DNA of 21,066 bases, taken from positions 1-21,066 of IMG/VR virus record IMGVR_UViG_3300021375_000202. One strand, given 5' to 3'. Within the stretch, counting starts at the first letter, position 1. Each line of letters starts with the position of its first letter. The notes under the pieces are model-generated. The model was given only the letters and a program-made list of their open reading frames with translations, was not told the origin of the DNA and made no database searches. Below, piece by piece: positions 8,139 through 20,678 of the stretch. Both the position numbers and the translations under genes were made by a program. This DNA is from a virus.

Positions 8139-8783
8139 ATGAAAACACTTATAACTTTTGGTGATAGTTGGCCACAAGGCGGAGAACTACAAGAGGATCT
8201 CGGTCAGTACCCGTACGGGCGACAACTTGCAGATCAGTATGGATTTAAGTTTTATAATTATGGTTCACCAGGTGCAAGTAACGAAGATATGGTTTTACAA
8301 CTTCTTGAATCAAAGTTAGAGAATGCAACTGCAATCTTCTTTTTAACAAACCCAGCAAGGAGCATGCATTGGCCATTGGGTATGAGTTGGCGGCATGACA
8401 GTAACGAAAGAAAACATTGGTGTTCAGATGCAAAGGATTTTGTTAAAACACTAAAATTACACTTTCATGATGACAATAAAGATACTATTAGAACAAGTAT
8501 GAGCGTAATTACACTACAACAAATGTGTAAAACACTTAACATCAACGACTATTACTTTGCAGGATGGATAAGACAAACAGATTGGCTACCTGGCGTAGAC
8601 ACTGATAAAATTTACAAAGGCGGAAATGAAACTGCGGCTGATTGGCTAGGAGCAACTGATCATAATGGCGAGCACTTACTTGGTGTACAAGATAATGAAT
8701 ACATACGTCCAAACTTTGCCCATCCTAATCATAATGGACATGCTCTAATTGCAAAAAAACTTGCAGAATGGATAAAACTATAG
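8139..8783 (+). CDS. SGNH/GDSL-type hydrolase (214 aa)
   Basis: The protein begins MKTLITFGDSW: GDSW at residues 8-11 is block I with the nucleophile Ser10. GSPGASN at 42-48 fits the Gly block, FFLTNP at 67-72 places Asn71 at the oxyanion-hole position, and AHPNHNGH at 194-201 is block V with His195. The usual Asp three residues before that His is Asn192 here, so the triad may be incomplete or the Asp replaced from elsewhere. SGNH enzymes are esterases or deacetylases acting on acyl groups of sugars, lipids or peptides. With a tail fibre gene one gene downstream, a role in modifying cell-surface polysaccharide is possible but unproven. It is homologous in layout to the second SGNH gene between nrdA and nrdB. 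It has no signal peptide. Confidence 0.8.
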   Translation: MKTLITFGDSWPQGGELQEDLGQYPYGRQLADQYGFKFYNYGSPGASNEDMVLQLLESKLENATAIFFLTNPARSMHWPLGMSWRHDSNERKHWCSDAKDFVKTLKLHFHDDNKDTIRTSMSVITLQQMCKTLNINDYYFAGWIRQTDWLPGVDTDKIYKGGNETAADWLGATDHNGEHLLGVQDNEYIRPNFAHPNHNGHALIAKKLAEWIKL

Positions 8784-8795: not shown

Positions 8796-9506
8796 ATGCT
8801 TATAGAAAAATTTCAATACAAAAATCTCTCACGTAAACAGGTCGACGGCAAGCGACTGTATTCTACTCCTGATGGCAATGCCGTGCCCAGTGTAACTACC
8901 ATACTAGGTGCTACACAATCAAAAGAAAAGCAAGAAGGTCTAGCACGATGGCGTAAACGTGTAGGCACTGACCAAGCACAAAAGATAGTTACTGAAGCTG
9001 CCAACAGAGGTACACGAATGCATACCTATTTAGAAAACTACTGTATTGATGGCACTATCAAAGAGCGTGGTAACAATCCATTCAGTTGGCAATCACATGC
9101 TATGGCACAAGCAGTAATAGAACAAGGTATGTGCAATGTTGACGAAGTATGGGGTGTTGAAGTACCCATGTACTTTCCGGGAATATATGCAGGTACAACA
9201 GACTGTGTCGGTGTACACAGCGGTGATGATGCAATCATGGATTTTAAACAATCAAACAAGCCCAAGAAAGTTGAGTGGATTGAAGATTACAAACTACAAC
9301 TTTGTGCATATGCAGAAGCACACAACGAAGTATATGGAACAAAAATACGTAAAGGTGTAGTGCTTATGGCAGTTAAGCCAGCAGTTGATGACATGGGACA
9401 TTTAAAAGAAGATCCTTTATATCAAGAGTTCGTTGTCGAAGGTGACGACTTTGAACACTGGCGTCAACAATGGTGGAAACGTGTAGAGCAGTACTACACT
9501 CAGTAA
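8796..9506 (+). CDS. PD-(D/E)XK exonuclease, RecB/MGME1-like
   Basis: The 236-aa protein shows the ordered motifs of the RecB-like PD-(D/E)XK nucleases. PSVTTILGAT is at 31-40, RGTRMHTYLENY at 71-82 (His76, Glu80), VWGVEVPM with Glu122 at 118-125, YAGTTDCVG with Asp136, IMDFKQS with Asp149 and Lys151, and the downstream helix YKLQLCAYAEA with Gln168 and Tyr172. These give the metal-binding and catalytic set of a DNA exonuclease; the early PSVTTIL and RGT..H elements recall the MGME1-like group. It probably trims or recycles DNA during replication or recombination. It has its own early-type promoter, unlike the structural genes around it, consistent with a DNA-metabolism gene. There is no Shine-Dalgarno upstream. 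Confidence 0.85.
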   Translation: MLIEKFQYKNLSRKQVDGKRLYSTPDGNAVPSVTTILGATQSKEKQEGLARWRKRVGTDQAQKIVTEAANRGTRMHTYLENYCIDGTIKERGNNPFSWQSHAMAQAVIEQGMCNVDEVWGVEVPMYFPGIYAGTTDCVGVHSGDDAIMDFKQSNKPKKVEWIEDYKLQLCAYAEAHNEVYGTKIRKGVVLMAVKPAVDDMGHLKEDPLYQEFVVEGDDFEHWRQQWWKRVEQYYTQ

Positions 9507-9517
9507 ATAGGTAAATA
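9502..9517 (+). promoter_or_regulatory. Tandem T4-late-type boxes AGTAAATA and GGTAAATA
   Basis: Two TAAATA boxes eight bases apart overlap and follow the stop of the nuclease gene, 26-41 bases before the tail fibre ATG. A ribosome-binding site CGGAG (9529-9533) follows. Two closely spaced late starts would fit a structural gene. Confidence 0.6.
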
Positions 9518-9542
9518 CTGCTAGATTACGGAGTTTCAATAG

Positions 9543-11138
9543 ATGGCAATAGTACAAGTATCGCGTATTACAAACCGCAAAGGGTTGAGTGAAAATCTTC
9601 CACAATTAGCAGGTGCTGAATTTGGTTGGGTAATTGACCAACGTAAATTATACATAGGTAACGGAACCATAGCAGAAGGTGCTCCGGCTATTGGAAATAC
9701 AGAGATACTAACACAGTATAGTGATATACTTGCAATATCATCTGCTTACACCTATAAAGGCGAACATGCAGGGTATACAGTACAAACTGGACCTACATCA
9801 AGTGATCCTGTTGCACAAACACTACAAGCAAAATTAGATAACTTTGCTAGTGTACTAGACTTTGGTGCAACTGGTGATGGAGTAACAGATGATACAGATG
9901 CTATTAACAGAGCTTTGTTTCAATTATTTTGTAGACAAACTAATACAACAATCAGACGTAGTTTATTTTTTCCAGGCGGAACATATAGAATAACACAACC
10001 AATACTGGTACCTCCTTATGCGAAACTATTTGGAGACGGGCCTGACAGTGCTATACTTGAAATGGATGTAGGATCAGACAGTTCTTTTGGTGCATATGTT
10101 ATTCAAACTGCTGACAGTTTGCAACAGACAGGTGTAAACATTGGCAACAACAGTGCAACTGCTCCAAGAGATATAGTCATTAGTGGCATGAGCTTTACTA
10201 GTTTAGAAGCAGGTGTAGACATGATGCTTATTGACAGAGCAGATGGTGTAAGTGTAACTAACTGTAACTTCAAGGGCAATTTATCAACCAATCCAGCAGA
10301 CGCAAGTGCAGATATTGCTGGAGTGCGTTTTGATAGTACTGCATCAAATACTTGTAAACAAATAGAATTTAATAACTGTAAGTTTAGTTTTTTAACTTAT
10401 GGACTTAACACTGACGAAAACATACAAGGTGTAACTGTACAAAATTCACAGTTTACAAACCTATATCAAGGCGTGTTGCTAGGCACAGGCACACCAGACA
10501 ATGGCGGCCCTGAAGGAGTTAGAATTGTACAAAACTTGTTTGATAAGATTGGCAAGCAAGGCATAAGCATTGGTGCAGTTGCATACAATATAAGTGCATA
10601 CAATATTTTCTTAGACGTGGCAAACGATTACTTAGGAGCAGGTAACCAGGCCGCACCGGTTATCGAATTTAACGGTGATAACAATGTTAGTGTTGGAGAT
10701 ATGTTTGAACGTAGCGATGCTGATGACAGATCACAACGTCGTGTAAAAAACAATGGCAAAGCCTGTTACGCACTTATAAATGGCGACGAAATAAAATTTG
10801 GAACTTATTATAGACTTGCAGGATCAAAAGCAGACCTATCAGTACAAGGAAGTGCAACAACAATTTTTACTGTAAACACCGGAAACGCAGCCGCTTTCAA
10901 TGTAATATATCAATACAAAGAACCAACAACTAACGTAATACGTTTTGGAGAGTTAAGAGTTGTAGGACAAGATACAGATGATAGTGCCGGAACACTAGCA
11001 TATGTAGATGACTTCTCAGAAGATAATCCAAACAGTTTTGTACTCAGTGCAGTACAAAGCGGAACATCAATCAGCATACAATACACAAGCACGATTGCAG
11101 CAACCTTTAAGTACTCAATAGAACATCTTAGTTTATAA
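9543..11138 (+). CDS. Tail fibre/tailspike with right-handed beta-helix (pectate-lyase-like)
   Basis: Residues 8-45 (RITNRKGLSENLP ... LAGAEFGWVIDQRKLYIGNG) match the short N-terminal attachment module seen in Mtd-type tail fibre proteins. Residues 106-121 (DFGATGDGVTDDTDAI) are the hallmark entry of the pectate-lyase-3/glycoside hydrolase 28-like beta-helix found in tailspikes. They are followed by FFPGGTYRIT and repeated strand-turn units with Asn ladders (e.g. VSVTNCNFKG, VQNSQFTNLY). The remaining C-terminal region (about 400-531) is Ser/Thr-rich and strand-rich. It should lie at the tail and bind, perhaps degrade, a host-surface polysaccharide. Length (531 aa) is normal for such fibres. 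Late promoters lie directly upstream. The exact host receptor cannot be read from sequence. Confidence 0.85.
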   Translation: MAIVQVSRITNRKGLSENLPQLAGAEFGWVIDQRKLYIGNGTIAEGAPAIGNTEILTQYSDILAISSAYTYKGEHAGYTVQTGPTSSDPVAQTLQAKLDNFASVLDFGATGDGVTDDTDAINRALFQLFCRQTNTTIRRSLFFPGGTYRITQPILVPPYAKLFGDGPDSAILEMDVGSDSSFGAYVIQTADSLQQTGVNIGNNSATAPRDIVISGMSFTSLEAGVDMMLIDRADGVSVTNCNFKGNLSTNPADASADIAGVRFDSTASNTCKQIEFNNCKFSFLTYGLNTDENIQGVTVQNSQFTNLYQGVLLGTGTPDNGGPEGVRIVQNLFDKIGKQGISIGAVAYNISAYNIFLDVANDYLGAGNQAAPVIEFNGDNNVSVGDMFERSDADDRSQRRVKNNGKACYALINGDEIKFGTYYRLAGSKADLSVQGSATTIFTVNTGNAAAFNVIYQYKEPTTNVIRFGELRVVGQDTDDSAGTLAYVDDFSEDNPNSFVLSAVQSGTSISIQYTSTIAATFKYSIEHLSL

Positions 11139-11408: not shown

Positions 11409-13715
11409 ATGACAATCCAAGTTACTAAGAGAGACGGAAGTAAAGAAGCATTAGACATTGAAAAATTACACAAAGTAGTGATGTGGGCAACAGAGAATAT
11501 AACCGGGGTAAGTGCAAGCCAAGTTGAAATAAGCAGTAATGTACAGTTTTATGATGGCATCACAAGTACAGACATACAGGAGACACTTATAAAAAGTGCC
11601 GCTGATTTAATATCAGAAGAAACACCAAACTATCAAACAGTTGCTGGTAGACTTATTGTATATCATATTAACAAAATGGTTTATGGTGGTGCTACGCCTT
11701 GGCATATTTACAAACTTGTAAAGCACAATGTTGAAAAGGGTTTCTATGATACAGAACTGTTAAGTGAATACACTGAAGAAGAATGGAATACCATCAACAG
11801 TTGGGTAAAACATGAACGTGATGAACAACTAACATATGCTGCCATGGAACAGTTTCGTGGCAAGTATCTTGTACAAAACAGAGTAACAAAAACACTTTAT
11901 GAAACTCCGCAAATGGCATATATGCTTATAGCGGCCACACTGTTTCAAGACTATGATCGCAAAAACAGACTGCGTTATGTAAAAGATTACTATGATGCTA
12001 TTTCAACACACCAAATTAGTTTACCAACTCCGGTAATGGCAGGAGTGCGTACACCACAAAGACAGTTTTCAAGTTGTGTACTAATAGAAACTGATGATAG
12101 TTTAGATAGTATAAATGCAACTGCAAGTTCAATTGTAAAATACGTTTCACAAAAAGCAGGCATTGGTATTAACGGTGGACGTATTAGAGCATTAGGGTCA
12201 CCTATTAGAAACGGTGATGCTTATCACACTGGCGTTGTGCCATTTTACAAAATGTTTCAAGCCGCCACACGTAGTTGTTCGCAAGGTGGAGTGCGTAACG
12301 GAGCGGCAACACTATATTATCCACTGTGGCACCTAGAAGTTGAAGACTTGTTAGTGTTGAAGAACAACAAAGGTACAGAAGACAACAGAGTTAGACACAT
12401 GGACTATGGTGTACAGTTTAACAAACTTATGTACGAACGTTTAATGTCAGGTGGAGACATTACATTGTTCTCTCCAAATGATGTTCCTGGTTTGTACGAT
12501 GCATTCTTTGCAGACCAAGACAAGTTCCGTGAATTATACGAAGCTGCTGAACGCAAGACAAGTATACGTAAGAAGAAAATAAGTGCCACAGAGTTGTTTA
12601 GTGCCTTTATGCAAGAAAGAAAAGACACAGGAAGAATATACTTGCAAAATGTAGATCATGCAAATGAGCACAGTAGTTTTAAAACAGATGTTGCACCTAT
12701 AAAGCAAAGCAACTTGTGTTGTGAAATAGACTTGCCAACCAAGCCTCTTGATGATATAAATGATGTAACCGGTGAAATTGCTTTGTGTACATTAAGTGCA
12801 ATTAACTGGGGTAGTTTTTCAAATCCAGAGGATATGGAAAAGGCATGTACACTTGCAGTACGTGGACTTGATGCACTCTTAAGTTATCAAAACTATCCAA
12901 TCATAGCCGCACAAATGGCAACGGAAGGTAGACGTCCTTTAGGTGTTGGTATAATTAATCTTGCATACTTTCTTGCAAAAAATGATACCAGTTACAGTGA
13001 TCCAGATGCACTTAAACTAGTAGATACATGGGCTCAACACTGGAGTTATTACTTGATAAAAGCAAGTGCTGATCTTGCGGAAGAGTTTGGTGCATGTCCA
13101 ATGAATAACGAAACAAAGTATTCAGATGGTGTGTTGCCAGTTGACACCTACAAGAAAGATGTTGATGAACTAGTGTTACATGTTGATGCAGTTGACTGGA
13201 CAGGATTGAGAACACAACTTAGAGAAACGGGCATACGTAATTCAACACTGATGGCACTTATGCCTGCTGAAACATCAGCACAGATAAGCAACAGTACAAA
13301 CGGCATTGAGCCACCAAGAGCATTTGTAAGTATCAAGCAAAGCAAAGATGGTGTACTTAAACAGGTTGTGCCAGGATATGCACGTTACAAAAACAAATAC
13401 GAACTACTATGGGACCAAAAGTCTCCAGAAGGTTACATAAAGATAATGGCAGTTATGCAAAAATATATTGATCAAGGCATAAGTGTAAACACGTCTTACA
13501 ACCCTGTACACTATGAAGATGAAAAGATACCAATGAGTGTAATGTTACAACATCTGCTACTATGTTATAAATACGGCCACAAGCAGTTGTATTACTTTAA
13601 CACATTTGATGGTGCTGGAGAAATCGACATAGACAAGATGAATGAAACACAACAACAAGAACTAACTATCGAAGAGCCTATGTACGAAGAAGCCTGCGAT
13701 AGTTGCACAATATAG
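11409..13715 (+). CDS. nrdA: Class Ia ribonucleoside-diphosphate reductase, large (alpha) subunit
   Basis: NrdA reduces NDPs to dNDPs with a radical passed from NrdB. The 768-aa length is normal. An ATP-cone begins the protein (VTKRDGSKEALDIEKLHKVV, residues 5-24), so allosteric activity control may be kept. Catalytic residues by position relative to E. coli: Cys223 (SSCVL) and Cys460 (ALCTLS) as the redox pair; Asn435, Cys437 and Glu439 in NLCCE; the radical-transfer tyrosines Tyr728 and Tyr729 (LYYFNTFDG). The C-terminal shuttle cysteines are Cys763 and Cys766 (CDSC). The active-site motif reads NLCCE where E. coli has NLCLE. It is the first gene after the sigma70 promoter. In this phage nrdB does not follow directly but after a gene that carries a copy of nrdB's 5' end. 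Confidence 0.97.
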   Translation: MTIQVTKRDGSKEALDIEKLHKVVMWATENITGVSASQVEISSNVQFYDGITSTDIQETLIKSAADLISEETPNYQTVAGRLIVYHINKMVYGGATPWHIYKLVKHNVEKGFYDTELLSEYTEEEWNTINSWVKHERDEQLTYAAMEQFRGKYLVQNRVTKTLYETPQMAYMLIAATLFQDYDRKNRLRYVKDYYDAISTHQISLPTPVMAGVRTPQRQFSSCVLIETDDSLDSINATASSIVKYVSQKAGIGINGGRIRALGSPIRNGDAYHTGVVPFYKMFQAATRSCSQGGVRNGAATLYYPLWHLEVEDLLVLKNNKGTEDNRVRHMDYGVQFNKLMYERLMSGGDITLFSPNDVPGLYDAFFADQDKFRELYEAAERKTSIRKKKISATELFSAFMQERKDTGRIYLQNVDHANEHSSFKTDVAPIKQSNLCCEIDLPTKPLDDINDVTGEIALCTLSAINWGSFSNPEDMEKACTLAVRGLDALLSYQNYPIIAAQMATEGRRPLGVGIINLAYFLAKNDTSYSDPDALKLVDTWAQHWSYYLIKASADLAEEFGACPMNNETKYSDGVLPVDTYKKDVDELVLHVDAVDWTGLRTQLRETGIRNSTLMALMPAETSAQISNSTNGIEPPRAFVSIKQSKDGVLKQVVPGYARYKNKYELLWDQKSPEGYIKIMAVMQKYIDQGISVNTSYNPVHYEDEKIPMSVMLQHLLLCYKYGHKQLYYFNTFDGAGEIDIDKMNETQQQELTIEEPMYEEACDSCTI

Positions 13716-13723
13716 GAAACACA

Positions 13724-13780
13724 ATGAGTGTATTGAATACAACCAATAGAGACCATACGACCAGTCTTGCATTCCTTGAT
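13724..13780 (+). repeat. Direct repeat, copy 1: duplicated first 19 codons of nrdB
   Basis: These 57 bases match 14606-14662 at 56 positions; the only difference is G at 13735 against A at 14617, a silent Leu codon change (TTG/TTA). Similarity stops after the GAT codon apart from two chance bases. Confidence 0.98.
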
Positions 13781-14605
13781 TCAATCAAGTTTAAATTTAA
13801 GCCACAATACTTTCATTCAGTAAAAAATAATTCTAATAAACTTCTTATTTGTGCTGGAGATAGCTGGACATGGGGAGATAGTTTAGGTGGTAGCAAACTA
13901 GATTCTCCAAATGTAGTTAAGGATAAACATAGGAAAGAACACATATATGGCAGTATAATTTCTAAGAAAATAAATTCAGATTTTATCAATATTGCTAAAC
14001 CTGGCGGATCGAATATTGAAATTCACGATATGTTAGCAGTGGTATTAGAAGATGCTGTTTTGGATAGCTTATATAACGAGATTCATGTCATTATATGCCT
14101 AACTGAAAATTGTAGAGAAGCATCAGGAGATCCAATCTGGGTACCATCGAATTTAGATAACATAGAAACAATAGACGATTTTCTAAAAGCATATGAACAA
14201 AACATGTTTTTGTCTTTAAGAGAAAATTTTATAGACAAGTATCCTGATATAAACTTTTATATTGGCAGAAATTTTACCTTTTCCTATGATGAAACTATAT
14301 TAGGAGATAATGTGTTAGATAAATTGTGGATTCAATGTTTAGAAATAAACGAGCCGTATCCAGAAGATGTGCGTTTTACTTCGGATATAGCAATAACTCC
14401 ATTGATAACGTGTTTGATAAAACTCGGCATTCATAAAAAATTAAAATATACGTTGATGGAATTTTTTGCTCGTAGTAATTTGGCGGTAGATTGGTTAGAG
14501 AAGAGTCCGTTAAACTATAACGAAGAGACCAAACATCCTACCGAAAAAGGACACGAAATTTATGCAAATTACATATATAATAAAATAAAGGAAAGAATAG
14601 AATAG
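13724..14605 (+). CDS. SGNH-hydrolase-like protein with an NrdB-derived N-terminal leader (293 aa), inserted between nrdA and nrdB
   Basis: Residues 1-19 (MSVLNTTNRD...SLAFLD) are identical to the first 19 residues of NrdB; from residue 20 on the protein is unrelated to NrdB. The body has SGNH blocks: LLICAGDSWTWGDSL with Ser47, PGGSN at 93-97, CLTEN at 125-129 with Asn129, and KHPTEKGH at 270-277 with His271; Glu268 stands at the usual Asp position. The start at 13724 is chosen because it carries the ribosome-binding site AGGAAA and the NrdB-like beginning; an in-frame ATG at 13703 lies inside nrdA. The body has no in-frame ATG of its own until residue 103, so it depends on the borrowed start. 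Composition is more AT-rich than its neighbours. TAG abuts the nrdB ATG. The substrate is unknown; esterase or deacetylase by family. Confidence 0.8.
   Translation: MSVLNTTNRDHTTSLAFLDSIKFKFKPQYFHSVKNNSNKLLICAGDSWTWGDSLGGSKLDSPNVVKDKHRKEHIYGSIISKKINSDFINIAKPGGSNIEIHDMLAVVLEDAVLDSLYNEIHVIICLTENCREASGDPIWVPSNLDNIETIDDFLKAYEQNMFLSLRENFIDKYPDINFYIGRNFTFSYDETILGDNVLDKLWIQCLEINEPYPEDVRFTSDIAITPLITCLIKLGIHKKLKYTLMEFFARSNLAVDWLEKSPLNYNEETKHPTEKGHEIYANYIYNKIKERIE
13781..14605 (+). other. Inserted segment between the nrdB 5'-end repeats
   Basis: This 825-base segment lies between the two repeat copies; repeat plus segment is 882 bases, exactly 294 codons. It codes for the SGNH body up to its stop. Hand counts on three sample 60-base lines gave 16-21 G+C, against 21-28 in sampled nrdA and nrdB lines, supporting a foreign origin. 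No integrase, transposase or homing endonuclease is in it. Confidence 0.7.
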
Positions 14606-14662
14606 ATGAGTGTATTAAATACAACCAATAGAGACCATACGACCAGTCTTGCATTCCTTGAT
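14606..14662 (+). repeat. Direct repeat, copy 2: authentic nrdB 5' end
   Basis: This is the second copy of the 57-base repeat, continuing into the conserved NrdB sequence (PAGGVGIQRYD...). The ribosome-binding site for it, AAGGAAAG at 14588-14595, lies in the inserted segment. Confidence 0.98.
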
Positions 14663-15730
14663 CCAGCAGGCGGAGTTGGAATACAACGTTATGATACCCT
14701 AAAGTACAGACAGTTTGATAAACTAACCGACAAGCAGTTGGGTTTCTTTTGGAGACCAGAAGAAGTAGATGTACTACGTGATGCAAAAGACTTTAAAGAG
14801 CTTACTGCCAATGAAAAGCATATCTTTACTAGCAATCTCAAAAGACAAATACTTTTGGATAGTGTACAAGGTAGAGCACCAATTGAGGCATTTGGTCCTA
14901 TTGTGAGTTTGCCTGAGTTGGAAAACTGGATTATCACTTGGACGTTTAGTGAAACAATACATTCAAAAAGTTACACACACATCATCCGTAATGTATATGC
15001 AAATCCAAGCAAGGTGTTTGATGAGATGATGGACATACAGGAGATTATTGACTGTGGAGAAGACATCACTGCATACTATGATGATTTAGTAGAAACTTGC
15101 AGTTACTACAACTTACTAGGTGAAGGTACACACACTGTAAACGGCAAAAAAGTCAAAATTGATCTATATGAACTAAAAAAGAAACTGTGGATTTGTTTGG
15201 CAAGTGTTAACATTTTAGAAGGTGTACGTTTTTATGTATCCTTTGCTTGTAGTTGGGCGTTTGCTGAACTTAAAAAGATGGAAGGTAATGCTAAGATTAT
15301 CAAGTTTATTGCACGAGATGAGAATGTACATCTAGCAAGCACACAACAACTTATGAAGATACTTCCACAAGATGATCCAGACTTTGTTAAAATAAAAGCA
15401 GAGTGTGAGCCACTTGTAATTAAGATGTTTGAAGATGCAGTGGAACAAGAATGTGCATGGGCTGACTATTTGTTTAAGGATGGTTCAATGATTGGACTTA
15501 ATGCACAGTTGCTTAAAGAATATGTACAATGGATTGCAAACAAACGTATGACCGCAGTTGGTGTACCGAGTAGTTATAAAGGAGCATCAAACCCACTACC
15601 ATGGACACAAAAGTGGATTGCAGGTGGTGATGTACAGGTAGCTCCACAGGAAACTGAGATAACTAGTTATGTTAACGGCGGAACAAAACAAGACGTAGAT
15701 AAAAATAGCTTTGCAGGATTTAGTTTATGA
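14606..15730 (+). CDS. nrdB: Class Ia ribonucleoside-diphosphate reductase, small (beta) subunit
   Basis: NrdB holds the diiron centre and tyrosyl radical for NrdA. All ligands are present, each one residue later than in E. coli NrdB: Asp85 (LLDSVQGR), Glu116 and His119 (SETIHS), radical Tyr123 (SYTHIIRN), Glu205 (NILEGVRF), Glu239 and His242 (RDENVHL). FFWRPEEVDV at 48-57 and the C-terminal tail ending NSFAGFSL, which docks into NrdA, are also typical. At 374 aa the length is normal and the gene looks intact despite the insertion just upstream. Its first 19 residues are duplicated as the leader of the SGNH gene; they precede the conserved core. The TGA stop overlaps the glutaredoxin ATG (ATGA). 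Confidence 0.97.
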   Translation: MSVLNTTNRDHTTSLAFLDPAGGVGIQRYDTLKYRQFDKLTDKQLGFFWRPEEVDVLRDAKDFKELTANEKHIFTSNLKRQILLDSVQGRAPIEAFGPIVSLPELENWIITWTFSETIHSKSYTHIIRNVYANPSKVFDEMMDIQEIIDCGEDITAYYDDLVETCSYYNLLGEGTHTVNGKKVKIDLYELKKKLWICLASVNILEGVRFYVSFACSWAFAELKKMEGNAKIIKFIARDENVHLASTQQLMKILPQDDPDFVKIKAECEPLVIKMFEDAVEQECAWADYLFKDGSMIGLNAQLLKEYVQWIANKRMTAVGVPSSYKGASNPLPWTQKWIAGGDVQVAPQETEITSYVNGGTKQDVDKNSFAGFSL

Positions 15731-15975
15731 GTATTGAAATTTATACAAAAGACTTGTGTGGTTATTGCGATGCAGCCAAAGACTTATTTGATCACATGGG
15801 TGTAAAGTATAATCAATACAAGTTAGGCACAGACGTTACAAGAGAACAACTCTTAGAAATTGCACCAAATGCAAAAACTGTACCACAAATTGTCATACAT
15901 GGACATTTAGTTGGCGGGTACGATGATCTGTGCGAATACATAGAAAATACAGGGTTCAACGGAACTGGCTACTAA
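15727..15975 (+). CDS. Glutaredoxin (CGYC)
   Basis: At 82 aa this is a minimal glutaredoxin. The active site is Cys11-Gly-Tyr-Cys14 (LCGYCDAAK), the cis-Pro loop is TVPQIVI with Pro53, and GGYDDL at 63-68 is the glutathione-binding turn. It would re-reduce the C-terminal cysteines of NrdA using glutathione, the role of T4 NrdC. The 4-base ATGA overlap with nrdB makes coupled production likely. Gly in place of the common Pro in the CPYC site is known among glutaredoxins and should change redox potential. Confidence 0.93.
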   Translation: MSIEIYTKDLCGYCDAAKDLFDHMGVKYNQYKLGTDVTREQLLEIAPNAKTVPQIVIHGHLVGGYDDLCEYIENTGFNGTGY

Positions 15976-15983
15976 GTAGTAGC

Positions 15984-17204
15984 ATGAATTACAACATTTG
16001 GAATAAATGGGACAAGCTCCAAACAGTAATGCTTGGCGATTGTTATAGCAGTAGATTCTTTAGAGATATTAAAAATACTAAAGTACGATCAGCACTAGAA
16101 CGAATTGCCGACGAAACACAAGAAGACTTAGAATGTTTCTATCATATTCTAAAAGACTTTGGTTGCAATATTATTAGACCAAAGTTAGATACAAATGATA
16201 GCATAATGAATTACACTGATCACGACGGAAACTTAAAATCAATACCTCGTGGTCCTTTACAACCTCGTGATGCACAGGTAGTAATAGGCAATAGTTTGTT
16301 ATATGTTGGTGATGATCATCCAAGTATTACAAACAAATTAGACGAATACGATAAGAATTATAAAAACATCAAAACACCTATTCCTAAAAAAAATTATCTT
16401 GACTACATGGGTGATGGTGCTCCAGACTGGCCATCATATGATGAACTAGTGAATAGATTTTTTAATAATGAACCACTTAGTAATGATATTAATATTAATA
16501 GAGAATTATTAGAGATATCAGCAAAGGAAGTACAGAAAAAACGCCATACATTTCCTGTGGCAGCTCCGAGTATTACTGTGGTTGGCAAAGACATCTATAT
16601 TGATATTCCAATGGATATGCCAGAGATATTACTTAACCACTGCATTAAAAAATTTAATACGGAGTATGCAGACTTCCGTGTAAACAATCTAAGGCATGGC
16701 GGACACAGTGATGGTTGCTTTCACACTATCAAACCTGGTGCAATATTAAGTTTACAAGAAATTCAAACCTATGAAGATACTTTTCCAGGATGGGACGTTT
16801 GCTATCTTCCTGATCAAAGTTGGGATAAAGTTAAGCCATTTGTTGAACTTAAAAACGAAGGCAAATGGTGGGTGCCGGGGGAAGAAAATAATCCTGCGTT
16901 TACACATTTTGTAGAAACCTGGCTTCAAGATTGGGTTGGCTATGTTCAAGAAACAGTATTTGATGTAAATGTACTTGTACTTGATGAACATCATGTATGC
17001 GTAAGTCAACCTGATAATGAGATTGTAAATACGTTTCTTAAGAAACACAATATGGAACCTGTGTATGTGCCGTGGCGTCATAGGTATTTTTGGGATGGTG
17101 GTCTGCATTGTATAACACTAGATCTAAAAAGGCAAGGCACACAACAAGACTATTTTCCAAATAGAAATAACCCAATAATTGATAAAGGATTTAACTATGC
17201 TTGA
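15984..17204 (+). CDS. Amidinotransferase family protein (arginine:glycine amidinotransferase-like)
   Basis: The 406-aa protein has the pattern of the amidinotransferase/guanidino-modifying superfamily. It opens with WDKLQTVMLGDCYSSRFF (9-26). PLQPRDAQVVIGNSLL (91-106) carries the catalytic Asp96, HGGHSDGCFHTIKPG (238-252) the His241-x-Asp243 element, and WDGGLHCITLDLKRQGTQ (370-387) the nucleophile Cys376. The last block closely follows the GGGFHCWT..RR.GT element I recall from arginine:glycine amidinotransferase. Such enzymes move an amidino group from arginine to an amine; the acceptor here is unknown. The start at 15984 is preferred over the in-frame ATG at 15930, which lies inside glutaredoxin. 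It sits at the end of the nrd run, so it is a candidate auxiliary metabolic gene. Confidence 0.85.
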   Translation: MNYNIWNKWDKLQTVMLGDCYSSRFFRDIKNTKVRSALERIADETQEDLECFYHILKDFGCNIIRPKLDTNDSIMNYTDHDGNLKSIPRGPLQPRDAQVVIGNSLLYVGDDHPSITNKLDEYDKNYKNIKTPIPKKNYLDYMGDGAPDWPSYDELVNRFFNNEPLSNDININRELLEISAKEVQKKRHTFPVAAPSITVVGKDIYIDIPMDMPEILLNHCIKKFNTEYADFRVNNLRHGGHSDGCFHTIKPGAILSLQEIQTYEDTFPGWDVCYLPDQSWDKVKPFVELKNEGKWWVPGEENNPAFTHFVETWLQDWVGYVQETVFDVNVLVLDEHHVCVSQPDNEIVNTFLKKHNMEPVYVPWRHRYFWDGGLHCITLDLKRQGTQQDYFPNRNNPIIDKGFNYA

Positions 17205-17493
17205 AAAAGACAAAATTTATTCTCTTAGACTAAGTGATAGCAGTGAAATTATCTGCAAAATAGTTAGCAGTGATAGCAACGCAACAATAATAAGCAATCC
17301 ATTCTCTCTTATTCCAACACAACAAGGTGTACAGCTTTTACCTGCAATGATGAGTGCAGATGAGACAAAAAATGTGACCATAAATACAAATAACATTACA
17401 ATGTACACTGAAACAAATAAAGATATAATTGCAAGTTATATACAGGCAAGTACAGGCATTGTAACACCAGCAAAAGGTATACTAAAAGGATAA
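17197..17493 (+). CDS. Small Sm-like (LSm) phage protein (98 aa)
   Basis: The start MLEKDKIYSL is chosen over the ATG at 17179 because AAAGGA (17184-17189) lies seven bases upstream; it overlaps the amidinotransferase stop by eight bases. The sequence IYSLRLSDSSEIICKIVSSD, then ATIISNPFSLIP, has the strand pattern of an Sm fold (L-x-L..G/S-x-E-h-h-x-K-h ... h-x-N-P), and the rest includes QGVQLLPAMMSADET and a strand NVTINTNNITMYTE. Proteins of this type are common in marine T4-like phages; whether they bind RNA is not shown. It leads directly into the PAAR gene, so it may instead be structural. Confidence 0.55.
   Translation: MLEKDKIYSLRLSDSSEIICKIVSSDSNATIISNPFSLIPTQQGVQLLPAMMSADETKNVTINTNNITMYTETNKDIIASYIQASTGIVTPAKGILKG
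17379..17386 (+). promoter_or_regulatory. Possible T4-late-type box (CATAAATA) upstream of the PAAR gene
   Basis: CATAAATA matches seven of eight positions of the T4 late consensus and lies 110 bases before the PAAR ATG, inside the Sm-like gene. The spike genes would be expected to be late. Because it is coding sequence, this is weak. Confidence 0.3.
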
Positions 17494-17495
17494 AC

Positions 17496-17789
17496 ATGCC
17501 AGGAGCAGTAAGAATAGGTGATGTAAACTCAGCAGGTGGAGCCGCAATAGGTTCTGGTGCAAGCAGTGTGATTATCAATGGCAGGGCCGCCTGTTTAGTA
17601 GGAACATCTGTGACACCTCATCCATGTTGCGGAGCTCCAGGTTGTGGAATACACTGTAGTGCAAAAACAACACTTGGTTCAATGAGTGTGATTGCAGAAA
17701 ACAAACCAATTAACTATGTCGGATCACCAGATACTTGTGGACATTCACGAGCAAATGGTAGCAATGACGTAATAATACCACGAGGTTAG
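17496..17789 (+). CDS. PAAR-motif baseplate spike-tip protein
   Basis: The 97-aa protein starts MPGAVRIGDVNSAGGAAIGS and continues with SSVIINGRAACLVG, CCGAPGCGIHCSA and SPDTCGHSRANGSNDVIIPRG. The order of short Gly-rich strand-turns with His and Cys residues is the PAAR repeat fold, a small cone that caps the central spike of contractile tails (T4 gp5.4) and type VI secretion. His61, Cys62 and nearby Cys/His residues are suited to binding the metal that sharpens the tip. Size is typical. It is two bases after the Sm-like gene and one base before the 710-aa protein, so these are probably made together for baseplate assembly. Confidence 0.88.
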   Translation: MPGAVRIGDVNSAGGAAIGSGASSVIINGRAACLVGTSVTPHPCCGAPGCGIHCSAKTTLGSMSVIAENKPINYVGSPDTCGHSRANGSNDVIIPRG

Positions 17790-17790
17790 T

Positions 17791-19923
17791 ATGGCTTGTG
17801 GTGGTGCAATTACAGCTACGGTGCTTACTGCTGGTGCAGGTATGGTCGGCGATATTGGTGGTGAAGTCTTAAAGTCAACAAGCGGAATAACAAACAATAT
17901 AACTGATAGTGTCACTGGTTTAACGGGCGATGTAAGCATGGCTAGTTTTACTAGTAATCAAGCCGCCTTTCAAGGACTTAGTTCGAGCACTGCTCTCACA
18001 AACACACTCGGCAAGGTAGCAACATTGCCTACAGGTTTACAAACAACATTTACAAATATGTCTAGTGGACTAGGCGAAAATGTATTCTCAAGTGGATTTG
18101 ATGTATTTTCAGGAGACGCATTAAGTGTAATGGCACCAGCTAGTGGCCTAGCAAACGTATTGCCCGGCGGCTTGACAGAAGCCGCAAGTGTAATGGGTGG
18201 TAGTGTAACTGGCTCAGATATACTAGGAAGTGCTAAAAAGTTTGGTAGTGTGTTTAGTAGTGCAGATGGATTTGTTGGCAGTGCTAATTCAATGATAGCC
18301 GCCGCAACAAACAGTGCAAGTGCATTTGCTGGCGGGACCTTCCCTGGCATGGATGGCATAATGAGCGGCAACCTTACTGGCATAACAAATGCATTGCCAG
18401 ACTTTGGTGCTGACCTAGGTAGTCTTGGATCAACTATAAATTTTGAAAGCATAGGTGATTTAGGATCACCGGGACAATTACTTAAAAACATGGACCTGGC
18501 AGGCAATCTCGGACCTATGTATGATAAGATTGCTGATATATCAGTTGATCCTCGTATTGCAAGTAGTTTGGGTGGAGATTTAAGCACAATTACAAATGCA
18601 GTAAATTCTGGTACAAGCGGACTTACACTTGGTAGTTTAGGTGTTGATCTTAACAAAGTAGCAGAAATTGGTCCTGCATTACCTAACAATATACAGAGCC
18701 AAGTCTTTAATGCATTTGATGGATTATCAACTGCAGAATTAGGAGACGTAAAAGGTATCCTCGGAAATACCCAAGCGGCAATAGCAAAAGGCGGAGACTT
18801 GATGAATCCGCAAAAACTATTCCCTACAAGTTTTTCAACACTTACTGCACCTCTTAGAACAGCCAGTGTGGGTGATAGAGCAATATACACAGCTGATGGT
18901 GCAGTCAATGCTGAATTTGATGATTTAGGCACAAATCTTGCTGGTGCACTCCCTGATGATTTGGCAGTAGCAAATGGAGCACTAGCAAGGAGTTTTGGAC
19001 AAGTTAAAGGTATTGACGGAAGTACTTCAAATCTATTAGCAACTGCTTCAACAACTGCTGAAACATTTAAAGATTTAGATTTAATACAAAATCAAACAAC
19101 ATATGTTGAGCCTGCGGTTGTTGATTTTTGGACTACAACATATAAAACGCAAGACGGAATTACACTTGGAACAGGACCAAATGGAACTTATACCATAAGT
19201 GATGTAATTGGCTATGCGGCAGGATATAACAGTGCCGCTCCTTTGCAACAGAACAAAATTGAAATGGAAAAACTTATTGCATCAGGTGCAATGGATGTGT
19301 TTACACGTGATGATGGATCAGGAAGTGCAAACACAGGTATCTATATAGTAATGGATTACTTTATTGATGGTGCATACAACGTCACAGTTTCCCCAGGACC
19401 TCCACCAGTAATAGAGTATGTCATACCTGCTGGTGTCTATGGTGCAGGTACATACGTTACACAAGAGGCTGCTTGGAATGCTATTATTGCGGCCGCTAAA
19501 ACAATAATGACTAACTTTTATACAGGCAATCCAGGAGCACAAATAATACAACGTAATTCTAAACGCATGCAAGAACAACAAGCAAGAGAAAAACTGATAC
19601 GACAAAAAATGGATTTGGATCTTACTGTTGTTCAATCACAAGACAATACTGCAATACAACTTGCAACTAATTTACCTGCTTTTGCTTTAGATACTACTGC
19701 AGGTGGAGCAAGTGAATTATTAGAACGTGTTATGAATTTTTCAAGTACAGGCGGACAAGCAGCGGTCGGCGCAATGCGAGAAGCAAGAAACGTAGACAAA
19801 CTTGCAACTGCAAATATACAATCAGATGCTCCAATACCACAAACTTTGCCGTCAAATCCTGGTGAAATTGCAAGCAGTACGTACACAGTCTCACAAGCTG
19901 ACGCAATCATAGTTAGAAGTTAA
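17791..19923 (+). CDS. Large Gly/Ala/Ser-rich virion protein, probably tail or baseplate associated (710 aa)
   Basis: The protein starts MACGGAITATVLTAGAGMVG one base after the PAAR stop. Residues 1-480 are rich in Ser, Gly, Ala, Leu and Asn with recurring L-G-S/L-G-x-x-L and G-L-x-x-x-L units, suggesting long helices or a repetitive rod. Residues about 530-580 contain a strand-rich part (NVTVSPGPPPVIEYVIPAG). Residues about 595-620 are a charged coiled coil (KRMQEQQAREKLIRQKM), and the end is IVRS. There is no enzyme motif. Position after PAAR implies a tail-tip or baseplate component; a tape-measure-like or ejected protein is an alternative. The TAA stop overlaps the next ATG. Confidence 0.65.
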   Translation: MACGGAITATVLTAGAGMVGDIGGEVLKSTSGITNNITDSVTGLTGDVSMASFTSNQAAFQGLSSSTALTNTLGKVATLPTGLQTTFTNMSSGLGENVFSSGFDVFSGDALSVMAPASGLANVLPGGLTEAASVMGGSVTGSDILGSAKKFGSVFSSADGFVGSANSMIAAATNSASAFAGGTFPGMDGIMSGNLTGITNALPDFGADLGSLGSTINFESIGDLGSPGQLLKNMDLAGNLGPMYDKIADISVDPRIASSLGGDLSTITNAVNSGTSGLTLGSLGVDLNKVAEIGPALPNNIQSQVFNAFDGLSTAELGDVKGILGNTQAAIAKGGDLMNPQKLFPTSFSTLTAPLRTASVGDRAIYTADGAVNAEFDDLGTNLAGALPDDLAVANGALARSFGQVKGIDGSTSNLLATASTTAETFKDLDLIQNQTTYVEPAVVDFWTTTYKTQDGITLGTGPNGTYTISDVIGYAAGYNSAAPLQQNKIEMEKLIASGAMDVFTRDDGSGSANTGIYIVMDYFIDGAYNVTVSPGPPPVIEYVIPAGVYGAGTYVTQEAAWNAIIAAAKTIMTNFYTGNPGAQIIQRNSKRMQEQQAREKLIRQKMDLDLTVVQSQDNTAIQLATNLPAFALDTTAGGASELLERVMNFSSTGGQAAVGAMREARNVDKLATANIQSDAPIPQTLPSNPGEIASSTYTVSQADAIIVRS

Positions 19924-20678
19924 TGTTTAACAGAGAAAATATTGCTCAAGCAAAAGCAGACTTTACACAAAACAGATATTGTATAATTGACAATGTTCTA
20001 CACGAAGAGCATATACAAGCACTATACAAAGCCGCTCCAGAAATGCCATATCAACTTCGTGCAAGGGCTACAGGTATAGATGTACGAACATATGCAGTAG
20101 ATTATAAACACACAGACGAGTTTCAACGCACACTAGAACAATATATACAGAATGCCAAAGGTAACTTCAGTTACTTTCACCATGTATATGTAGCAGCCAA
20201 AGATAAGAAAAATCATGCTGATCCATTAGTAACCGAATTTAATCATATTATACAAGAAGATTATACACATGGACAACCTGATTATACATTTCATGATCTA
20301 GCAACTGACATAACTGGATTTCCTAACATGGTAGCAAAAAATGGAAACTATGGATACTACGACTATCAAAGTTGGTTAAAAATGCACAACGATGTTAGAA
20401 GATGGTGTGCTTACATATTCTATTTCAATCCAGCATGGGAACCAGATTGGGGCGGACAACTTTGTATTATGGACGATACAGGCAAAAATATTAAAGAAAG
20501 CATAATACCTTATGGAAACAGGCTGGTGCTTATGGATGTAAGCAAAGTAGATATCAATACACACTTTGTATCTCCAGTGAGCATAGGCGCTGATCATCCT
20601 CGTTACAGTCTAAGTGGATGGTTCTATCAGAAAGAAAAAGATGGTCCAGGACCAGAAAAACGGTTGACAAACTCATAG
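19923..20678 (+). CDS. 2-oxoglutarate/Fe(II)-dependent oxygenase (prolyl-4-hydroxylase-like)
   Basis: The 251-aa protein carries the 2OG-Fe(II) oxygenase signature in its C-terminal half. His155-x-Asp157 (KMHNDVRRW) is followed by YIFYFNPAWEPDWGGQL (164-180), IIPYGNRLVLMDV, the distal His214 (THFVSPV) and Arg227 (HPRYSLSGWFY) that would bind 2-oxoglutarate. The N-terminal part (NRYCIIDNVLHEEHIQALYK) is the usual lead-in strand and helix. Such enzymes hydroxylate proteins, nucleic acids or small molecules, and are frequent in marine T4-like phages. Here the start is joined by a TAATG overlap to the 710-aa structural gene. The substrate is unknown; the virion protein made with it is a possibility. 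Confidence 0.88.
   Translation: MFNRENIAQAKADFTQNRYCIIDNVLHEEHIQALYKAAPEMPYQLRARATGIDVRTYAVDYKHTDEFQRTLEQYIQNAKGNFSYFHHVYVAAKDKKNHADPLVTEFNHIIQEDYTHGQPDYTFHDLATDITGFPNMVAKNGNYGYYDYQSWLKMHNDVRRWCAYIFYFNPAWEPDWGGQLCIMDDTGKNIKESIIPYGNRLVLMDVSKVDINTHFVSPVSIGADHPRYSLSGWFYQKEKDGPGPEKRLTNS

What the first reader, a model, noticed from the sequence alone, without database searches (positions are those of the whole stretch)
15984..17204. Amidinotransferase as a candidate auxiliary metabolic gene at the end of the nrd run
The Asp96, His241 and Cys376 set is intact, and the C-terminal block resembles arginine:glycine amidinotransferase, so an active enzyme is likely. Its place after nrdA-nrdB-glutaredoxin suggests early expression. 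It may draw on host arginine, make a guanidino compound, or modify a base or a sugar. The acceptor is unknown.
Basis: partly seen in the sequence, partly recalled or inferred. Interest (0 to 1): 0.6.

Follow-up and report, generated by a model that had tools for sequence, protein, structure and literature searches.

The report
Rewired viral relative of arginine amidinotransferases
This phage gene belongs to a large family of enzymes, seen almost only in viruses, that resemble the human creatine-pathway enzyme but have lost one of its three catalytic residues and often sit beside a tRNA-dependent transferase-like gene, so they probably modify arginine in a way not yet described.

Summary
The gene is real: ATG 15984, stop 17204, 406 aa, purifying selection (omega 0.15 against an 87% identical homologue). 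It has the amidinotransferase fold and its closest solved relatives are AGAT, SxtG, HsvA and StrB1, not deiminases. In 94 family members Cys376, His241 and Asp243 are 93-94/94, but position 193 is mostly N, S, C, H or D. The family ('VAT') forms its own supported clade, has acids that canonical enzymes lack (Asp371, Glu323), and is found in hundreds of viral contigs but almost no cellular genomes. Canonical, Asp254-bearing amidinotransferases occur separately in some of the same phage genomes, beside UDP-glucose dehydrogenase. The nrd link holds in only 18 of 48 non-redundant loci; 27 of 48 lie beside a tight trio: a small aminoacyl-tRNA-transferase-like (ATE_C) protein, a DUF6875-like protein and DUF6614. 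In two near-identical genomes VAT was swapped between conserved flanks. Most likely it is an active Cys/His guanidine-modifying enzyme acting on something other than free arginine plus glycine. Its substrate is unknown.

The parts
15984..17204 (+). VAT: viral AGAT-like protein, 406 aa
   Evidence: ORF and homologue start; profile hits to AGAT/SxtG/HsvA/StrB1; fold match
16269..16271 (+). Asp96, equals AGAT Asp170 (guanidinium-binding Asp), 90/94 conserved
16560..16562 (+). Ala193, aligned with AGAT catalytic Asp254; variable in the family
16704..16712 (+). His241-x-Asp243, equals AGAT His303/Asp305; 94/94 and 93/94
16860..16892 (+). VAT-specific insert motif GKWWVPGEExN (293-303)
16941..16964 (+). 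8-residue VAT-specific insert YVQETVFD (320-327) with near-invariant Glu323
17094..17096 (+). Asp371, VAT-specific acid five residues before the nucleophile; Gly in 23/24 canonical enzymes
17109..17111 (+). Cys376, equals AGAT nucleophile Cys407, 93/94 conserved
11409..13715 (+). nrdA (context)
   Evidence: phrog_84
14606..15730 (+). nrdB (context)
   Evidence: phrog_86
15727..15975 (+). glutaredoxin (context)
   Evidence: phrog_22
17197..17493 (+). downstream small protein (phrog_527), ATG overlaps the VAT stop by 8 nt
17496..17789 (+). PAAR protein (context)
   Evidence: phrog_281

Best explanation
The gene encodes an active enzyme of the pentein fold in a virus-dominated sister clade of the AGAT/StrB1 amidinotransferases. 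Shown by sequence: Asp96 and Asp243 (guanidinium holders), His241 (acid/base) and Cys376 (nucleophile) are kept, while the acid that primes the histidine in AGAT (Asp254) has been released from selection and new near-invariant acids (Asp371, Glu323) and two inserts have appeared. Inferred: Cys376 attacks a guanidino carbon to form an amidino-enzyme (S-alkylthiouronium) intermediate as in other pentein enzymes, with Asp371 or Glu323 taking over the role of Asp254; the guanidino group is presented on something other than free arginine, most likely an arginine residue or arginine conjugate, such as one made by the aminoacyl-tRNA-transferase-like protein encoded next to many VAT genes; the amidino group then passes to an amine acceptor or is hydrolysed off. 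The last two steps are guesses from context.
For: Profile search: the only significant PDB hits are AGAT, SxtG, HsvA and StrB1, E 1.9e-23 to 2e-16. AlphaFold model (pLDDT 81.5) best matches the same four proteins, E 4.5e-18 to 3e-16, then deiminases at 1e-8. Conservation in 94 members; acid at position 193 in only 13 of 57 tree rows with 11 changes on the tree, against 24 of 24 in canonical enzymes; Asp371 56/57 versus Gly 23/24. Separate clade, support 100/98. PAD4 works with the tetrad Asp350, His471, Asp473, Cys645 (PMC3525017), the same chemical set as Asp96, His241, Asp243, Cys376. Neighbour trio with an ATE_C-like protein (Pfam in 20 of 24 members, best 2e-9; fold nearest to aminoacyl-tRNA-dependent transferases MprF and ATE1 among GNAT folds) in 27 of 48 loci. 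omega 0.154.
Against: No substrate or activity was tested. The window (21 kb fragment) itself has no ATE-like gene; in the long relative G005 the trio lies about 100 kb from VAT, and several long VAT contigs show no trio gene. Many trio loci have no VAT nearby (17 of 58 do). TM-scores are modest (0.54-0.57).
Confidence: 0.42

Rival explanations
1. Classical auxiliary metabolic gene: an arginine:amine amidinotransferase that moves the amidino group of free arginine to a small amine or an aminosugar.
Against: The glycan-cluster copies that keep Asp254 are a different, canonical clade present separately in some of the same genomes; VAT lost Asp254 and gained inserts; only one VAT member (S-SCSM2R) was seen in a sugar cluster.
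Confidence: 0.27
2. Arginine or peptidyl-arginine deiminase/hydrolase: water, not an amine, resolves the intermediate, giving citrulline, or ornithine plus urea.
For: The conserved tetrad equals that of PAD4, whose listed key residues include no Asp254 equivalent; pentein fold shared.
Against: Sequence, tree and fold place it with amidinotransferases; deiminases are far weaker matches and the Pfam ADI model does not match.
Confidence: 0.15
3. Pseudoenzyme: a guanidine-binding or structural protein that has lost catalysis.
For: Catalytic acid position unconstrained; one paralogue, L040, has lost the Cys, showing decay can happen; adjacent to baseplate-type genes.
Against: Cys376 93/94 and His241 94/94 in very diverse sequences; new acids fixed near the nucleophile.
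Confidence: 0.1

Closest known systems
L-arginine:glycine amidinotransferase (AGAT, 1JDW), with SxtG, HsvA, StrB1
   Same: Fold; Asp170, His303, Asp305, Cys407 equivalents; HC-x-T-x-D C-terminal block
   Different: Asp254 equivalent replaced (Ala193 here, variable in family); VAT-only inserts GKWWVPGEE and YVQETVFD; Asp371 in place of Gly; separate clade
Glycine amidinotransferase-like genes of Campylobacter phages CP220/CPt10 (PMC2853527)
   Same: Phage-borne, AGAT-like, in radical-SAM clusters; some VAT members (L026, L029, L043) also lie among radical-SAM-type genes
   Different: CP220 and CPt10 proteins keep the Asp254 equivalent and fall with the canonical side of the tree
Peptidyl-arginine deiminase (PAD4)
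   Same: Tetrad Asp-His-Asp-Cys
   Different: Much weaker fold match (E 2e-6); different subfamily and domain structure
phrog_25854 (unknown function)
   Same: The only PHROG that VAT matches (E 4.8e-13)
   Different: Also matches the canonical phage enzymes, better (E 1.7e-20), so it does not separate the two clades
DUF6875 heme proteins (PMC13307353, citing a preprint on a 'cytochrome P422' family)
   Same: Neighbour [2] of VAT shows weak DUF6875 similarity in 15 of 29 members
   Different: Weak (best E 1.5e-5); heme binding not tested; not in the window

Membership tests
AGAT / amidinotransferase branch of the pentein fold | Homology of sequence and fold to AGAT/StrB1 | tested here: met
AGAT / amidinotransferase branch of the pentein fold | Cys-His-Asp catalytic triad (AGAT Cys407, His303, Asp254; PMC3684758, PMC2844391) | tested here: not met
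   Cys and His met; Asp254 position is Ala193, acid in 13/57 family rows
AGAT / amidinotransferase branch of the pentein fold | Guanidinium-binding Asp170 and Asp305 | tested here: met
   Asp96 90/94, Asp243 93/94
AGAT / amidinotransferase branch of the pentein fold | Amidino transfer from arginine to an amine | not testable with these tools
   needs an enzyme assay
AGAT / amidinotransferase branch of the pentein fold | Phylogenetic placement inside known amidinotransferases | tested here: not met
   own clade, 100/98, separate from cellular and canonical viral enzymes
Arginine deiminase (PF02274 ADI) | Match to the ADI model | tested here: not met
   no Pfam match other than a chance DUF3231
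Peptidyl-arginine deiminase | Asp/His/Asp/Cys tetrad | tested here: inconclusive
   Asp96, His241, Asp243, Cys376 match in kind and order, but PAD4 was not aligned residue by residue here
Peptidyl-arginine deiminase | Best sequence and fold match to PAD | tested here: not met
   PAD4 far down the fold list, no sequence hit
Auxiliary metabolic gene | Cellular homologue taken from hosts | tested here: inconclusive
   VAT found in 4 contigs of about 85,000 genomes (at least one phage-like) and 1 of 399 genomes searched by profile; no recent host donor seen, but the contig scan is pattern-limited

The most novel reading that the evidence does not exclude
VAT and the trio (ATE_C-like aminoacyl-tRNA transferase, DUF6875-like possible heme protein, DUF6614) form a widespread phage system that adds an amino acid, perhaps arginine, from tRNA to a protein or peptide and then rebuilds its guanidino group: a new tRNA-dependent modification pathway used by viruses.
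Probability: 0.15. Interest if true: 0.87.

Novelty: new variant of a known kind. Interest (0 to 1): 0.56.

Why it matters
It shows that phage 'glycine amidinotransferase' annotations lump two clades: one that keeps AGAT chemistry and sits with sugar genes, and a larger viral one with a rewired active site. Treating the second as creatine-type or arginine metabolism would be a mistake. The recurring neighbourhood with a tRNA-dependent-transferase-like protein gives a concrete, testable lead to a chemistry not yet described in viruses, and the swapping of VAT alleles between conserved flanks suggests selection on its specificity.

Tried and rejected
Pfam, NCBIfam and PADLOC gave no family for the protein. 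Deiminase membership was rejected. The nrd operon as the family's home was rejected as general. HMO-2011 looked promising through gene [2], but its neighbours are not an amidinotransferase or DUF6614. The Campylobacter phage enzymes were tested as the same family and fall on the canonical side. An early mapping of AGAT Ser354/355 to Glu322/323 was dropped: the wider alignment shows an 8-residue insert there. Literature searches for phage amidinotransferase with cyanophage, AMG or guanidino terms, for DUF6614 and for arginyltransferase plus amidinotransferase gave nothing on this family. T4 late promoter motif: one TATAAATA, inside nrdA, uninformative.

Full report
Observation. The first solid match is to SxtG, HsvA and AGAT in the last 70 residues; a profile of 23 viral homologues matches AGAT over both halves, E 1.9e-23, with SxtG, HsvA and StrB1 as the only other significant hits (the remaining entries listed are at E 0.0085 or worse). 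An AlphaFold model built on those homologues (mean pLDDT 81.5) has the same proteins as best PDB matches (E 4.5e-18 to 3e-16); arginine deiminases follow at about 1e-8. Against L002 (87% identical) omega is 0.154, and 0.13-0.22 against others, so the protein is constrained but evolves faster than nrdB (omega 0.01-0.05).

Active site. AGAT's triad is Asp254, His303, Cys407 (PMC3684758, PMC2844391). Aligning the window protein with human AGAT and 16 cellular relatives maps Asp96 to the Asp of AGAT's PRD motif (Asp170), His241 to His303, Asp243 to Asp305, Cys376 to Cys407 and Ala193 to Asp254 (the numbers 170 and 305 and their guanidinium-binding role are from my own knowledge of the family). In 94 distinct family members His241 is 94, Cys376 93, Asp243 93 and Asp96 90, while position 193 is N 23, D 19, S 15, C 7, H 6 and others (three of these 94 rows proved to be canonical enzymes). 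On the tree rows it is acidic in 13 of 57 with 11 changes, against 24 of 24 (one Glu) in cellular and canonical viral enzymes. Acids that only this family has are Asp371, five residues before the Cys (56/57; Gly in 23/24 canonical), and Glu323 in an 8-residue insert (55/57; absent from canonical). So the loss of Asp254 is probably a relocation and not decay; this last step is inference, since no coordinates could be measured.

Family and distribution. I call the family VAT. It is one side of a branch with support 100/98; canonical viral enzymes and cellular AGATs lie on the other side. The same kind of scan of about 85,000 genomes gave four contigs: one (L042) carries phage-like genes, and the Bdellovibrionia copy L044 lies on a 917-kb contig and may be cellular or a prophage. 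A profile search of 399 genomes of one bacterial phylum gave one VAT, that same L042 genome. Scans with short patterns can miss members. VAT genes recur within one genome: tandem pairs in L020, L063 and L085, two in L096, and three in the 328-kb relative G005. One paralogue, L040, has lost the Cys.

A second, canonical enzyme. Six of the long contigs examined (G005, G006, G007, G008, G011, G015), plus L052, L096 and L100, also carry an enzyme of about 305 residues with Asp254, HID(S/T)T and the Cys; its neighbours include UDP-glucose dehydrogenase, and in Synechococcus phage S-SCSM2R glycosyltransferases. The Campylobacter phage enzymes reported earlier (PMC2853527) keep the Asp and fall on that side. 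Published reports of viral amidinotransferase or creatine genes (PMC11360552, PMC8226683) do not, in the passages read, mention this clade.

Neighbourhood. In the window and its close relatives VAT follows nrdB-glutaredoxin and precedes a phrog_527 protein and PAAR. Over 48 loci non-redundant at 80% VAT identity with at least 2.5 kb on each side, nrdB or glutaredoxin is near in 18, but a member of a three-gene set is near in 27 and at least two members in 25. In L061, L063, L075, L077 and L088 these genes and VAT sit in the nrdB/glutaredoxin-PAAR slot. The set is: [2] about 165 aa, weakly DUF6875 (15 of 29 members, best 1.5e-5), a domain reported as heme-binding tryptophan oxidases (PMC13307353); [3] about 145 aa, ATE_C, the arginyl-tRNA-protein transferase C-terminal domain, in 20 of 24 members, whose high-confidence model (pLDDT 95.6) is nearest to MprF-type and ATE1 aminoacyl-tRNA transferases, although ordinary GNAT acetyltransferases also match; and [8] DUF6614. 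Searched from [3] independently of VAT, 57 of 58 loci have [2] and 55 have [8] within 2.5 kb, but only 17 have VAT. So the trio is a unit and VAT a frequent, not obligatory, partner. The window fragment has no ATE-like gene; the relative G005 has the trio far from its VAT.

Cassette exchange. L008 and L022 share nrdA 98%, nrdB 100%, glutaredoxin 93%, the next gene 96% and PAAR 91%, but VAT only 49.5%: a deeply diverged VAT allele has been exchanged in place.

How it may work. Kept residues point to guanidine chemistry through a Cys adduct. PAD4, which acts on arginine in proteins, is described with just such a tetrad (PMC3525017). Together with the ATE-like neighbour this makes an arginine residue or conjugate a reasonable substrate. 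None of this is shown. The classical reading (free arginine to a small acceptor), hydrolysis and a pseudoenzyme remain as rivals.

Noticed in passing
window 13703-14605: An SGNH-like ORF sits between nrdA and nrdB and begins with a 60-nt near-copy (97%) of the 5' end of nrdB (13724-13783 and 14606-14665); only L001 and L002 of the related loci have it. It looks like an insertion that duplicated the nrdB start.
   Followed up: partly
L012 about 9098-9743: A different ORF (begins VTVLAIGDSN) is inserted between nrdB and glutaredoxin in this relative, so the nrd region is an insertion hot spot.
   Followed up: partly
window 8139-8783: A second SGNH-like ORF (GDSWPQGG motif) without any PHROG match.
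   Followed up: no
window 19923-20678: 2OG-Fe(II) oxygenase-like protein two genes after PAAR (PADLOC 2OG model 5.6e-12, NCBIfam FlmC weak); conserved downstream of VAT in several relatives.
   Followed up: no
L203-L276: Many other phages carry the trio [2]-[3]-[8] next to a T4-type baseplate gene, often followed by an unknown protein of about 350 aa, a nucleoside-phosphorylase-like protein or a DUF6165 protein instead of VAT.
   Followed up: partly
L026, L029: Long runs of radical-SAM-type genes around VAT, similar in kind to the Campylobacter phage clusters.
   Followed up: partly
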